A stretch of 64,000 nucleotides of DNA from Apophysomyces variabilis (lineage: Eukaryota > Mucoromycota > Mucoromycetes > Mucorales > Mucoraceae), in assembly GCA_002749535.1 (NCBI GenBank), contig MZZL01000117.1, positions 310,001 through 374,000 of the forward strand, in the 5' to 3' direction. Positions 1 to 14,935 of this stretch are shown piece by piece. Numbering within the stretch: the first letter of the stretch is position 1; every line of letters begins with the position of its first letter. The position numbers were made by a program, and so were the translations under genes. The notes beneath the pieces are model-generated. The model was given only the letters and a program-made list of their open reading frames with translations. It did not search any database and was not told the origin of the DNA.

Positions 1-403
1 CAACAAGAAGACCACCGATAATATCGGGCTTGACCTTGTTAGAGACCAAAAGCTTCTTGCCCTCAGCTAACTTGCTCTTTTGCAAAGCATCTGTGACTTT
101 GTTCAATGTAGTCTTGTCCAAAGGCTAATGATTGAAAACAGACATCATACTGAATAAACCTTTGAACCAAATCAACCCTATTGTTTATAACTTTACCTTT
201 GCAGAAGTGACAACCATGGGCAATTCGTTACGGTGAGCGCTCATCAATTCAGCATAGGCATCCATGATCTTGGTGGTCTGTTCCAAACGACCATTCTCGG
301 CCAAGGTCTCGAACAAGTTGGCGGTCAAGGCGTTGACCTTGCCAGACTTCTCCAACAATGCATAAACACCTTCCATCTTTAACAGTACGCGTCACGGTTG
401 GGT
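1..403 (-). pseudogene. Displaced 3' part of ATP5 (OSCP), truncated and frameshifted
   Basis: Positions 1-403 align base for base with 4357-4759 of the intact ATP5 gene on the same strand. The aligned part covers an exon piece (1-124), the whole intron (125-196, identical) and part of the next exon (197-403). Up to about 372 there are only two substitutions (near 358 and 370). At 377-389 the copy differs and has one extra base relative to 4733-4744, which shifts the frame. All similarity stops at about 404. The 5' half of the gene (mitochondrial leader and first 100 or so residues) is absent, so this copy cannot make OSCP. The copy runs off the left edge of the window, so its 3' end is not visible. 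Near-perfect intron identity means the duplication is recent or kept uniform by gene conversion. Confidence 0.9.
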
Positions 404-718
404 CAAAAGATTTCCCTTGTCTACTATTAATTATAACAGCGACATCCTTGTGCTGTTACGTATATTATAGGGGAAAGGGATGTGCTGGGTAATGTGATGT
501 CTATGGTCAGCTTTATTTCTTTGTTTTTTGATAGGAGTAAAGGATTCAGAAACAGTGATAAGTTGACAGCGCAGTTCAAAAAAATTGTGTTAAACAGACA
601 AAAAGATCACATGAAAGGATACCGAGCAAAGTTGTATGTATGAGCCAGGTCAAATCCACGCATCATCCAAGGAGAGGTGTCAGATAACCAAACGCTTGCC
701 GGAGAAGGCTTTGGGAGC

Positions 719-1215
719 TATGTAGACCTACCTAAAATGTTAGTAATCATAAAGAGTGTGGACTAGAGGAAATTGCAAGAATGGCCAGCGCTTGAAATCC
801 CATCTAAGGCCGCCAGATGCCGCCAGATGCCAGGGGCTGTCTTAGGCGACTGTCTTAAACGGACTCTCAGAATGGGGCATCTCGAGTAACATAGCCACCA
901 AAAAACATTAACCTGGAAGACGCCAGATGCCGTCAGATGCCAGTGGCTGTCTTAAACGGCTGTCTTAAGCGGCAACCAAACTTTTTTTGGCTCCTTTCAT
1001 GATTAACCGAATTCATAACTACTTTTGTCTGCAGACTACCGAAAATATATGATATTTGAATTTGACGGCTATGTAAACATACCGAAAATGTTTAGTAATT
1101 ACAAAGAATGGTGGCTTGAGAAAATCTCGTTTGAAATCCCATCTAAGGCCCCCAGATGCCAGTGGCTGTCTTGAAACGATGATCAAACGTTCTTTACTCC
1201 TTGTATTATTATCCA
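719..1215. repeat. Diverged direct repeats around GCCAGATGCC motifs
   Basis: Two copies of a unit of about 120-140 bp can be read, from about 719 and from about 1069. Each starts TATGTA-A/G-AC, continues with an AAAATGTT-AGTAAT block, and then has TGAAATCCCATCTAAGGC, one to two CCAGATGCC motifs and GGCTGTCTT. A third partial copy lies at about 917-1000 (CGCCAGATGCC, then GGCTGTCTTAAACGG and a second GCTGTCTTAAGCGG). Inside the first unit GCCGCCAGAT is tandemly repeated. I see no open frame and no clear terminal inverted repeats. The block lies between the displaced ATP5 end and the nuclease-like gene. It could be a degenerate non-autonomous repeat. Confidence 0.6.
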
Positions 1216-1384
1216 AATTGATAAGTATACTTTGCACACATTTGAAGAGGCCACGTTTGGAATACAGCTGAGTAGAGTTTATTGTTGATGGCGCATCTGA
1301 TTTTCGGAATTCAAATACGCCACTCAGTGGGCTGTTCTGCAGCTCGCATTAACTGGCATTTCTCTACCTTCTAGCTACCCTATA

Positions 1385-3665
1385 ATGCACTATAAGGAAG
1401 GTTCGTTTAATGGGAAAGCCTTTTCATGTATACGGGCTTATTTCGTACCTGTTGTAGCATTTACAGCTTATGCCAACGCTTGTTTCGAAGAGGGGCGCAC
1501 TGTGAAGCTATCCGCAGCTCTGAAAGCCATTGATTCTACTGTCGTTTCTGAATCACCGACTGTCACCGAACTTGAGGATTTGAAAAATGGTTGGCAAAGC
1601 CGTCTAGCTTTTACATATCACGGTATTAAGAAAGATTTTCCTATTCAAAGCGATGTAGCAAGGGTACGTGCTAGCCGGGTTTTTTGACCTCTGTGTTAAA
1701 GTTCTCCACGTAGATAGAGTACGACGTATCGCAGGACGAATGGATAAAACTCTACTCACGGGTCGTCGAGGTAATTATGCTTATATAGTAGCTAAGCATA
1801 GATTTATTGACCATAGTGCTTTGCCAGAATGAGATTTTGAATGATAAGAAGCTGGCACAGGTGGGCTGACTCCGCACGACCTCGACACTGTACAAAAGTG
1901 CAAGCGAAGACTTTGGACGTGAGATTTTACAAGAAGCATGTGAGTATGAATAGGTTTTGCGTAGTCCGCGAAAAGAAAATTCTAACTTAGCCATGTTTCT
2001 GATAGCAAATAATGGTCAAACATTGGATTGGCAGATTGCAGTCGAAGACGATGGCATTGAAGGTCTTCAACCTCCAACAGAAGAAGCTACCCCCGAAAAA
2101 TTTTAGAAGCACGGTTTTCGAAACTGGGTACAAATCCGTAAGTGGATTATTCTTTGATTGAGAGTAGCTAACTAACGTCCTCATCCTTCCCCTGTTTCTT
2201 TTGTTCTGCAGTTTAGACGCCAACTCTCCTTCGAATCGCTCGCTAAACTCAATACTATGGCGCGTCGGACGAAACCAGCGTCACTGGGAGACTGGGTTGA
2301 TATGTTCTCTGTCTCACTTATCAACTCAGATCTATCAAAAGCAAGAAAGGAAGTCCTGAAGTACGTTTGTATTGGCTATACGTGATTTGTGTTTGCTGAA
2401 GATCAAAAGGCTCTCACTTTCAAGAATTGTATATCTGATAGGAGGGGAATCAATACACTTGTATGAAAACTTCTTTTGCGACAAGACATCCATCCAAAAC
2501 AAGTGGCTGGAGGCAAAGAGCCAGAAACCAGAGCTTGGGCGAGGAATGACGAACAACATGCATGACGTTCTTGACGAGATCATAAAGGTAAGGAAATTCT
2601 AGTGGTTGGGGTCACTGAACCATTCGCATCTTTTCATTGTGCAGAGGGCAGCTGTGGGCAAACTAGAGGCTAGGAAGCTCGTCTGCCAAAAGAAACTGCA
2701 GGTGCTCGATACGGGTGTGAACGACAATGAGCTTTTGCAGATGCTCGACATCATGGATACTGTTATTGCGGATCTACCGGATGATAATGAAATACAATCT
2801 CGCCGTGCAACAAAAAAAAGCGAGCTTACTCATTATCGGCACGTTGCGAAGTTGTTAGACATCATGTTTCGCGACACTAACTTTGATATGGAAGAGTAAG
2901 CCACTTAATAGACATACTATGTGTAGAACATATATGCTTCTTGATTGTAGTAATGATTATAAATTAGTGGAGAGACATGCAGCAAGGCGACGAAGGCTGC
3001 TCGGCAATACAACATGAACATGTGCGGCGATAACGAGCAAAAGCAAACCGTGATTGGCCGCAGGATAGACCTCCTCATAAGCAAGATGGCGATTGAGCTA
3101 GGCTCTTCAGAATGGAAGAAGGAGAACGTAGCATCAAGCGTGGGCCGGCAGCAGCAGATCAAGAATGTACGGACAAACAAGGCGATTTTACGAGCGCTAG
3201 AAAGAATGCCAGTCGATGACGACAAACGCGAGGAACTATTTGTGCTCGGTATGGATTGGTTAGGTAAAGGCACACTGCAGTAGAGTACGTGTTATGGAAT
3301 TAGGCTAATCTGCGACATATGTAGGCTCGCTCTGATATATGATAGCCATAAAACAGTTCGATTCTGCATATGTTGCCTATTTCATGGGAGACCTAATCCT
3401 ACCCCCGACCCTTAGTAATCTCGGTGACTTTAAACAAACGTTGGACCTTTTATTTGCTGTCAAGCATCACCACATAAAACTGGAGAAGATCGTGGAGCCG
3501 GCGTATCGCCGAAAAAAAGCGCAATCAGTATTACAACACTATCGATCACCGGCAATACCGAAAAGGGACTTGAGCCCTGACACGTTCTTCACGCCAGTTA
3601 AGAAGCAACGCGTTAGGAAGGTTTTCGAGGAGGAGGAGGAGGAGGACGTCGATGAAGAAGCTTAA
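1385..3665 (+). CDS. Lineage-specific family protein with putative PD-(D/E)XK nuclease-like core
   Basis: Ten exons join without a stop: 1385-1663, 1714-1770, 1828-1860, 1910-1939, 2006-2137, 2212-2360, 2410-2587, 2645-2895, 2968-3263, 3346-3665 (about 574 aa). The splice choice around 1860-2006 is the weakest. The C-terminal third has GETCSKATK (372-380), IGRRIDLLIS (399-408) and SSEWKKE (416-422), then an amphipathic Gln-rich helix. Asp404 followed by Glu418-x-Lys420 fits the D...(D/E)xK arrangement of restriction-like nucleases, but this is my inference. The end is acidic (EEEEEEDVDEE) after a KKQR basic patch, suggesting a nuclear protein. I remember similar sequences as a large, unnamed family in Mucoromycota. 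It lies between two copies of the ATP5 3' end, with repeats 170 bp upstream. Reactions and partners are unknown. Confidence 0.68.
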
Positions 3666-4228
3666 ATCATAATTACTGTATTCACAATCACGTTCATATG
3701 CGCTATCCAGGAATGAGATCCAAAGTCCACGCTTAATTGTTTGGAAGCCAGATCACATAGTCAATGATTTACTGTCAGCAAGATGGGGACAGAACCAGGT
3801 TCTTTGATCAATGCGGGATATTGCTTACAAAGTCTGTTTCTGGTCGAGGTCGCGTACGTCTGAAAGCCTAAATCGTTCTGTCGGACAACATAGTAGTATC
3901 GCATACGTCCCGTTTCACTAATGCTTCAATTTGAAGAAAAGAAAGACTTCAGATCGCACTAATGCCACCCGTTTCTCTGTTTCACTCCGCCATTCGCCTA
4001 GTACACTGTACGGACATGCTAGGATCACCGGTCACCCTATACTATATAGATTTCGTAATACATGTTGCCAAAGCGAAATATTGTTTGGAAAAGAACTCTG
4101 CGGTAATTTACGAACAATGCGCTAAACGGGCAACTCTACAAGTTTCAAATTTCGATCAAAGATGAATTGCATGGAATGGTTTAATGATTGGGCTGAAAGA
4201 TATCATTCTTTTTTCTTTATTTCGTTGT
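3666..4228. other. Convergent intergenic spacer
   Basis: The 563 bp between the stop codons of the nuclease-like gene (+) and ATP5 (-) hold only short overlapping frames (for example 3931-4165) without splice support or recognisable motifs. No RNA gene or mobile element was seen. Confidence 0.6.
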
Positions 4229-5117
4229 TTAGACAGAATCTAAGGAGAATTTAAGTAAAACAACCTTTCCAATAACAATTCACTTACCGGTAACAAGCTT
4301 GTTCAATTTGGCCAATTTGGTGGAAACAGTCAAGTCAATGCTCTTCTCACCAATCTCAACAAGAAGACCACCGATAATATCGGGCTTGACCTTGTTAGAG
4401 ACCAAAAGCTTCTTGCCCTCAGCTAACTTGCTCTTTTGCAAAGCATCTGTGACTTTGTTCAATGTAGTCTTGTCCAAAGGCTAATGATTGAAAACAGACA
4501 TCATACTGAATAAACCTTTGAACCAAATCAACCCTATTGTTTATAACTTTACCTTTGCAGAAGTGACAACCATGGGCAATTCGTTACGGTGAGCGCTCAT
4601 CAATTCAGCATAGGCATCCATGATCTTGGTGGTCTGTTCCAAACGACCATTCTCGGCCAAGGTCTCGAACAAGTTGGCGGTCAAGGCGTTGACCTTGCCA
4701 GACTTCTTCAACAATGCATGAACACCTTCCATTTTCGCAGCACGCGTGACGGTTGGGTTCTCCAAGAAATCTTGGATAGCCTTTTCTTCACTGACGATCG
4801 TCTGGAGTTGCTTCAAGTCCTTTTCAACAGCCTCCAGCGCGTTTTGACGCACAGCAGCAGTGTACAAGGCGGTGGCATAACGACCATCAAGACCGTAGAG
4901 AGTGACAGGTGCCTATAAAGTAAAAAAAGCATGAGCGTCTTTGACTCGTGTATATGACTTTCATTTAGCGGGACAGTGTACCTTGATGTGGGTAGCAGCT
5001 GCAGCATAACCGCGAGCCAACTATCACGTAAGTTTCAGTACATTTCGAGTACATAGCTGTTGCCATGACTAGTACCTTAGGAACGGCAGTAGTCAAGCGT
5101 GTGAATCTAGAAGCCAT
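4229..5117 (-). CDS. ATP5: ATP synthase subunit 5 / OSCP, mitochondrial
   Basis: Oligomycin-sensitivity-conferring protein is the peripheral-stalk subunit linking the F1 head to the membrane part of mitochondrial ATP synthase. Exons on the minus strand: 5076-5117, 4982-5020, 4553-4912, 4288-4480, 4229-4239 (214 aa, close to the yeast length of about 212). The protein starts MASRFTRLTTAVPK, a basic mitochondrial leader, then LARGYAAAATHIK. The body has LYTAAVRQNALEAVEKDL and ends KLNKLV-TDSV, matching the family end. The last exon is only 11 nt (ATTCTGTCTAA after CTTAG). Without it the frame would run through a GTAAGT donor and end in TGK. The 3' half (4357-4759) is duplicated at 1-403. The start at 5117 is the only ATG giving the leader. 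Confidence 0.95.
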
Positions 5118-5620
5118 GGCAAGTACCAACGAGGGTCTGCAGCCCAAAAAAAAAAATTTCGTGTTTTTGGGCGGGGAAAGCGATCCACAGTAGGAGTGTG
5201 TGACTGACTGCGATTCGAGGATGCAGACAGCTTCAAATGCTGTGTACGTAACGCCTGAAACTTGCTTATCGGCAAGGATACGTTTTCTAGCATTAATACC
5301 ATGATTCTTCCTGCGATTATAGGCGTCAGTTATGCATAAACCATAATATAGTTCGCCGATTCGTTAGATGCAATAGTGAGAAGTGCAAGCATTGTGTTCG
5401 TGGTAACACCTGCCTGCCATATCAATATAAGCAACAAGCAGAAAAAGGATTTCTTCTCTCGGGAAATATCGATATCAACATTCGGCCAAATTGAACTGTA
5501 TACCCTAACTGATATGCAACGAAACTTTGCTGTTGCTTACAAATGCGGGCATCGGTCTCTAGAAACTCATCTGTCGGCAAGTCATTGACATTAAAGCTAT
5601 CATTAAGAAAGAGAGGTTCA

Positions 5621-14809: not shown

Positions 14810-14935
14810 NNNNNNNNNNNNNNNNNNNNNNNNNNNNNNNNNNNNNNNNNNNNNNNNNNNNNNNNNNNNNNNNNNNNNNNNNNNNNNNNNNNNNNNNNNN
14901 NNNNNNNNNNNNNNNNNNNNNNNNNNNNNNNNNNN
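14810..14935. other. Assembly gap (126 N) between poly-A tracts
   Basis: 126 undetermined bases, with 24 A residues ending at 14799 to the left and 16 A starting at 14936 to the right. The bases just left of the gap (14795-14809, AAAAATGGAAAGAAA) recur just right of it (14953-14967), so the two contig ends probably overlap and the true gap may be zero or negative. Confidence 0.95.

What the first reader, a model, noticed from the sequence alone, without database searches (positions are those of the whole stretch)
1..4759. Nuclease-like gene lies between an intact ATP5 and a displaced copy of the ATP5 3' end
ATP5 (minus) is intact, but its 3' half (4357-4759) is repeated in the same orientation at 1-403, 3.95 kb downstream of the gene. 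Between the two lie the repeats and a gene with a putative PD-(D/E)XK core. Direct copies of a host gene's 3' end around an endonuclease gene are what an inserting selfish element would leave if it carried a replacement 3' end to restore its target. I remember this layout from fungal mitochondrial elements (Allomyces atp6 and Rhizophagus mtDNA genes). A nuclear case would be new to me. The alternative is a plain tandem duplication of a 4,356-bp unit (404-4759). The two models make different predictions about the sequence left of position 1.
Basis: partly seen in the sequence, partly recalled or inferred. Interest (0 to 1): 0.93.

Follow-up and report, generated by a model that had tools for sequence, protein, structure and literature searches.

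The report
Displaced ATP5 end beside nuclease-like pseudogene
In the fungus Apophysomyces, a nuclease-like gene of a little-known family sits between the energy gene ATP5 and a second copy of that gene's end, a layout otherwise known from yeast and mitochondrial homing elements, but nothing found so far shows that the gene put itself there.

Summary
The repeat runs ~535 bp left of position 1: ATP5 3' end plus ~0.35 kb of diverged downstream DNA, then unrelated genes. No second copy of 404-3702 was found there, so plain tandem duplication of 404-4759 would need a later loss. The copies are mosaic: 541/541 identical over exons, intron and stop, but 240/356 downstream and 44/51 at the break; gene conversion is likely. 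The genome is taken as Apophysomyces variabilis. A. ossiformis appears to carry the same trio on one contig, so the event predates the two species. The window's nuclease-like gene is broken.

The layout matches yeast WHO elements and mitochondrial mORFs, so a nuclear precedent exists. But ATP5's 3' end is native, none of 11 other family members found has a host 3' duplicate detected around it, and the nuclease fold is unconfirmed. Best reading: an old break in ATP5 repaired by an insertion that copied the 3' end and left ATP5 whole. Homing is possible, unproven.

The parts
1..403 (-). Displaced ATP5 3' copy (part inside the window; continues left to about C11:309465). 5'-truncated; open frame from an internal ATG, then the intron and the rest of the gene
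404..1384 (.). Spacer with short tandem repeats (799-862, 909-972, 1128-1175)
   Evidence: repeats; query 404-4356 matched only itself and, over 3885-4356, the ATP5 3' copy
1493..3665 (+). Nuclease-like gene, multi-exon, broken (two in-frame stops, one frame change relative to A. ossiformis P0001)
   Evidence: tblastn of P0001; 464 of 496 compared residues identical, residues 116-157 and 546-560 not compared
2969..3265 (+). Most conserved part of that gene (97 of 99 residues identical to A. ossiformis): GRRIDL...SSEWK...QQxKNxR, proposed PD-(D/E)XK-like core
3666..3702 (.). Element/host boundary: homology with the left copy begins about 38 bp after the stop codon
3703..4165 (.). Right copy of the ATP5-downstream intergenic DNA, diverged from the left copy (240/356 identical, 145 gap columns, counted from 3690)
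4166..4707 (-). Homogenised block: 541/541 aligned bases identical to the left copy, one single-base length difference; includes the stop codon, an intron and exon sequence
4229..5117 (-). Intact ATP5 (OSCP subunit of mitochondrial ATP synthase), 214 aa
   Evidence: 98% to P0006
4708..4759 (-). Junction-side end of the duplication, 44/51 identical to the left copy; homology stops near ATP5 codon 80

Best explanation
An old insertion-with-duplication. A break in ATP5 near codon 80 was repaired so that (a) the original 3' end and its downstream DNA stayed in place as the left fragment, (b) the 5' side was extended by a second copy of the ATP5 3' end plus about 0.5 kb of downstream DNA, and (c) about 3.3 kb holding a nuclease-family gene went in between. 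ATP5 stayed whole. This happened before A. variabilis and A. ossiformis split. Afterwards gene conversion kept the ATP5 part of the two copies alike within each species while the non-coding flanks drifted. The nuclease-like gene stayed constrained for long and has broken recently in A. variabilis. Shown: both copies, their limits, the mosaic, no second nuclease copy found, the broken gene, three proteins each on a contig of one and the same length. Inferred: the break, the one-step repair, gene conversion, the order of events, that the three proteins are neighbours in A. ossiformis. Unknown: who made the break.
For: Left copy runs into unrelated sequence with no second 404-3702 segment found. 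Right copy starts within about 40 bp of the nuclease-like stop codon, so one insert fits between the two limits. Mosaic identity 541/541 against 240/356 and 44/51 (Fisher 4e-53 and 2e-8). P0001, P0006 and P0050 each lie on one contig of 71,756 bp; P0050 equals the last 127 residues of P0006. The one replacement separating the two species' ATP5 inside the fragment (residue 153) is shared by both copies in each species. Region 346-444 is 97/99 identical to A. ossiformis against 44/57 for residues 3-59. WHO10 insertions in T. globosa show one-off host 3'-end duplications in two of five cases.
Against: No DNA of A. ossiformis or of an empty-site relative could be read, so order and single step are inferred. 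A two-step history (small tandem duplication, then insertion at its joint; or larger duplication, then deletion) gives the same end state. The assembly is a short-read draft (if the species is right). Concerted evolution between species rests on one informative residue; in the window the fragment also differs from intact ATP5 at two residues near the break.
Confidence: 0.55

Rival explanations
1. A WHO-like homing element: the nuclease cuts empty ATP5 alleles near codon 80, and repair from the element-bearing chromosome copies the nuclease gene with its ATP5 3' end, using the displaced 3' copy as second homology arm.
For: Same gene order and a 3' limit inside the coding sequence as WHO/FBA1; broken in one species and apparently intact in another; no orthologue seen in Apophysomyces sp. 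BC1034, whose ATP5 is in the same database; core strongly conserved.
Against: ATP5 5' and 3' parts show no discordant origin: against BC1034 the 3' half is 123/134 and the 5' part 68/80 identical, and the 3' tree groups window, P0006 and P0007. 0 of 11 other family members found have a host 3' duplicate detected around them. No homing-endonuclease domain found. No older copies found near ATP5.
Confidence: 0.2
2. Two ordinary steps: either a small tandem duplication of the ATP5 3' end with its downstream DNA and later insertion of a nuclease-family gene at the joint, or a larger duplication including that gene and later loss of one copy.
For: Tandem duplications are common (general knowledge); several family members sit among repeats.
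Against: The first form needs the insertion exactly at the joint; the second needs a deletion ending within about 40 bp of the stop codon. No convincing nuclease-like remnant left of the fragment: best protein match E 0.33, and one 19-residue tblastx match at E 0.023 to the opposite strand, taken as chance.
Confidence: 0.2
3. Assembly artefact of a short-read draft.
For: SOAPdenovo2 short-read assembly; a 541-bp perfect repeat is hard for short reads.
Against: No N within 1-5200; diverged flanks on both sides of both copies; a second genome shows the same three proteins on one contig length.
Confidence: 0.03

Closest known systems
WHO elements at FBA1 in Torulaspora and Lachancea (Coughlan et al. 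2020, PMC7282813; abstract and sections 7, 10, 12, 13 read)
   Same: Nuclear; endonuclease gene between a full host gene and a 3' fragment of it; host gene stays whole; gene transcribed on its own and may be opposite to the host gene; pseudogenes common; WHO10 insertions with one-off host 3' duplicates.
   Different: WHO proteins are intein-related endonucleases with a zinc finger, one shown to cut FBA1; FBA1 3' ends are chimeric and diverged, and the genes cluster. Here no such domain was found, the 3' end is native, copies are homogenised, and one unit was found.
Mitochondrial mobile ORFs that replace C-terminal coding ends (Glomus atp6/atp9/cox2/nad3, Allomyces atp6, Rhizopus oryzae atp9, Mortierella verticillata cox2; PMC3630166, passages seen)
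   Same: Endonuclease ORF between a complete (hybrid) gene and the displaced native 3' end.
   Different: Mitochondrial; LAGLIDADG or GIY-YIG in the Glomus cases; inserted end diverged from native end (63.5% in Glomus atp6) and interpreted as foreign. Here 541/541 identical in the coding part.
Mucorales family of hypothetical proteins around EC973_002086 (A. ossiformis), INT45_012715 (Circinella minor), PS15p_206781 (Mucor circinelloides)
   Same: The central gene belongs to it: 464/496 compared residues identical to the A. ossiformis protein.
   Different: The sources shown call them hypothetical or unnamed; among the 12 family matches found in this genome, a host 3' duplicate was detected only here.

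Membership tests
WHO element | Gene lies between full-length host gene and a duplicated 3' fragment | tested here: met
WHO element | Intein-related endonuclease with zinc finger (LAGLIDADG label recalled) | tested here: not met
   No Pfam family at E up to 5 for P0001, P0002, P0004; for 14 members at E up to 10 seven unrelated families, one member each, best E 0.0043. Strongly diverged domains could be missed
WHO element | Host gene 3' end chimeric or of discordant origin | tested here: not met
   protein level, 24 rows: 3' half groups with BC1034 and is less diverged from it than the 5' part
WHO element | Protein cuts the host gene allele-specifically | not testable with these tools
   needs an assay
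WHO element | Empty-site alleles in the population or relatives | not testable with these tools
   no DNA of relatives; only absence of a BC1034 orthologue among hits
Mitochondrial C-terminal-replacing mORF | Mitochondrial genome location | tested here: not met
   635-kb contig C11 with intron-bearing genes
Mitochondrial C-terminal-replacing mORF | Inserted 3' end diverged from the native end | tested here: not met
   541/541 identical in the coding block, though flanks differ
PD-(D/E)XK nuclease superfamily | Conserved D ... E-x-K with following helix residues (motif reading recalled) | tested here: met
   D379, E393-W-K395, Q407 Q408 K410 N411 R413 invariant in 7 sequences; E393, W394, K395, Q407, Q408, K410, N411, R413 invariant in 14, where several partial rows do not reach D379
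PD-(D/E)XK nuclease superfamily | alpha/beta core fold | tested here: inconclusive
Plain tandem duplication of 404-4759 | Second copy of 404-4356 left of the window | tested here: not met
   only 3885-4356 (plus about 3703-3761) is present; no convincing nuclease-like remnant

The most novel reading that the evidence does not exclude
The first WHO-like homing element outside budding yeasts: a nuclear element of an early-diverging fungus with an unrelated, possibly PD-(D/E)XK-type nuclease that cuts ATP5 near codon 80, spreads by supplying the ATP5 3' end, and uses the displaced end as homology arm. It would be a convergent origin of this way of moving.
Probability: 0.17. Interest if true: 0.85.

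Novelty: new variant of a known kind. Interest (0 to 1): 0.5.

Why it matters
If the nuclease made its own site, host-gene-end replacement has arisen with at least two unrelated nucleases in nuclear genomes, and essential genes with tolerant 3' ends may be general homing targets. If not, the locus is still a clear natural case of an insertion that spares an essential gene by copying its 3' end, with gene conversion holding the two ends alike across a species split. It also draws attention to a multi-copy Mucorales protein family that the sources shown leave unnamed.

Tried and rejected
Plain tandem duplication of 404-4759: no second copy found to the left. A 19-residue tblastx match (E 0.023, opposite strand) between the DNA just before the nuclease-like gene and L004 6802-6858 was taken as chance. 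Older ATP5 fragments further left, as in WHO clusters: only the one fragment; other rows E 0.28 or worse. Foreign origin of the ATP5 3' end: 5'/3' identity split and trees on 24 rows, not supported. Generality: nine stretches (16-20 kb) holding the other 11 matches were scanned for repeats. Blastn (pairs of 50 bp or more, E 1e-4) gave one same-orientation pair across a member, in C93a, which is the two members with each other. Tblastx gave in addition two short pairs in C93b (14 aa at 50%; 44 aa at 34%), not counted as host duplicates. Limits of that scan: N gaps in C93a and C109, the latter 1.8 kb beside the member, a contig end 6 kb from the C30 member, and family counts are lower bounds. 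Terminal inverted repeats as a family trait: pairs of 77-178 bp flank members at C95b, C103, C80 and C109, longer palindromes lie at C89 and C95a. The C103 ends are a dispersed repeat (20 matches listed); the C95b ends were found only there; the C80 query found only its own left end. The ATP5 unit has none beyond a 13-bp match. I read them as background, not as the mover. Structure: P0001 model pLDDT 54.7, not searched; P0003 model 70.8 but under 50 over nearly all of the motif; Foldseek and VIA-align gave no nuclease match, which does not exclude the fold. PDB-sequence searches: two weak hits to P0001 at E 0.028 and 0.16 (mS141, mS125; residues 139-337), none with the profile. An early gene model read upstream exons in a wrong frame; the A. 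ossiformis protein corrected it. Paper searches, seen as listings (title, start of abstract): Apophysomyces with homing endonuclease gave three papers, none on this; one search listed eight, mitochondrial ones and the WHO paper; one search listed 8 of 20 on Apophysomyces; one search listed 6 of 15; (Torulaspora, WHO elements, homing, from 2021) gave none; two searches gave the two papers compared. I saw no description of this locus in those listings; that is no proof that none exists.

Full report
What is there. The window is C11:310001-374000 of a 38.7-Mb assembly. Contig C95 of that assembly is 3,993,377 bp, the same as the largest scaffold of the Apophysomyces variabilis draft in Table 1 of PMC5604411 (passages seen), so I take the genome to be A. 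variabilis. (The paper gives 39.4 Mb in 431 scaffolds, the copy held here 38.7 Mb in 126, so the held copy may be filtered.) ATP5 is on the minus strand, CDS 4229-5117, 214 aa. Its 3' part is repeated at 1-403.

The left side. I read 10 kb around the left edge. The match runs from about -447 to 403 against 3885-4758 at 88%, and a weaker 59-bp match (75%) sits at about -535 against 3703. Beyond it lie a minus-strand ORF, a gene I recognise as RPL36-like, and others (names from reading the sequence, recalled). A genome-wide search with 404-4356 finds only itself and this ATP5 3' copy. The A. ossiformis protein finds no convincing remnant left of the fragment (best E 0.33; one 19-residue tblastx match between the two stretches at E 0.023, opposite strand). 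So the left copy is ATP5 3' end plus downstream DNA, with nothing recognisable of the nuclease-like gene.

The mosaic. Aligned end to end, the two copies are identical over 541 of 541 aligned bases (window 4166-4707, one single-base length difference), including an intron and the stop codon. They are 240/356 identical with 145 gap columns on the downstream side, and 44/51 with 2 gap columns on the break side (Fisher p 4e-53 and 2e-8 against the core). Uniform ageing cannot give this; gene conversion over the ATP5 part can. Truly diverged copies would not be merged by a short-read assembler, so the identity is unlikely to be only an assembly effect (inference).

A second species. The best protein hit to the central gene is EC973_002086 of A. 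ossiformis (P0001, 560 aa, one contig of 71,756 bp). The ATP5 search returned P0006 (214 aa, 98%) and P0050 (127 aa), each on a contig of 71,756 bp; their name fields are empty, so placing them in A. ossiformis beside P0001 rests on the equal contig length. P0050 is identical to the last 127 residues of P0006. The two species' full-length ATP5 differ at four residues, one of them (153) inside the fragment; there both copies carry the residue of their own species. In the window the fragment also differs from intact ATP5 at two residues close to the break, outside the homogenised block. The layout is therefore probably older than the species split, and the copies have evolved together.

The central gene. 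Against P0001 the window gene has exons between 1493 and 3665, two in-frame stops and one frame change. Of 496 compared residues 464 are identical; the stretch 346-444 is 97/99 and residues 3-59 only 44/57. Left out of that count: residues 116-157, where identity is lowest (14 of 21 over 116-136) and the frame changes, 546-560, and a few at exon edges. Constraint on the C-terminal core lasted until recently (inference). Relatives occur in Circinella (54-59%), Mucor, Syncephalastrum, Rhizopus and Parasitella. The own genome has at least 12 matches to the core, this one included, the others at 38-48% identity. The core has invariant D379, E393-x-K395 and QQxKNxR, which reads as PD-(D/E)XK-like. 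Two models, a Foldseek search, a VIA-align look (both with the P0003 model only), Pfam and PDB-sequence searches neither confirm nor exclude that.

Tests of homing. The WHO paper (PMC7282813; abstract and sections 7, 10, 12, 13 read) gives predictions. Layout: met. Chimeric 3' end: not met; window against BC1034 is 68/80 in the 5' part and 123/134 in the 3' part, and the 3' tree groups window, P0006 and P0007 at 99/98. Tendency of the family to sit by host 3' fragments: 0 of 11 others detected, with the limits given under Tried and rejected. Cutting: untestable here. Apophysomyces sp. BC1034 has an ATP5 in the database (P0007) but no hit to the nuclease-like gene among 5 and 14 hits; this fits a later arrival or a loss, and the word filter and annotation limit its weight.

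Judgement. An insertion that copied the ATP5 3' end explains the limits of both copies in one step and leaves ATP5 whole. Two-step histories remain possible. Self-driven homing is the most novel reading that is not excluded.

Noticed in passing
C95:3763851-3764283 (gene about L005 4500-5425): A second, apparently intact ATP5 gene (68% at DNA level); A. ossiformis P0015 is its counterpart, and P0008 (BC1015) groups with both.
   Followed up: partly
C93:71111-71529, C80:205787-206232, C109:19986-20372, C95:3522998-3523416: Near-identical tandem direct duplications (153-210 bp, 97-100%) upstream of the core of four family members; the window gene has weaker tandem repeats at 799-1175. Possibly a recurrent promoter-region feature.
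   Followed up: partly
C95:3520760-3524042 and C80:202730-206794: Family members enclosed by inverted repeats found only at their locus (115 bp at 87%; 142 bp at 77%); the C95 ends begin CAGTC.
   Followed up: partly
C95:1784714-1793600 and C89:145530-156669: Near-perfect large palindromes (arms 2.66 kb and 3.8 kb, over 99.7% identical) around family members; real or assembly effects not settled.
   Followed up: no
C93:74478-75501 (L024): ORFs that look Fanzor/TnpB-like by recalled motif; not tested.
   Followed up: no
L004 3543-4894: Dispersed repeat with a Tc1-like transposase remnant (recalled motif), 87-91% to copies on C30 and C95, about 3.6 kb from the displaced ATP5 fragment.
   Followed up: no
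window 14810-14935: 126-base run of N.
   Followed up: no
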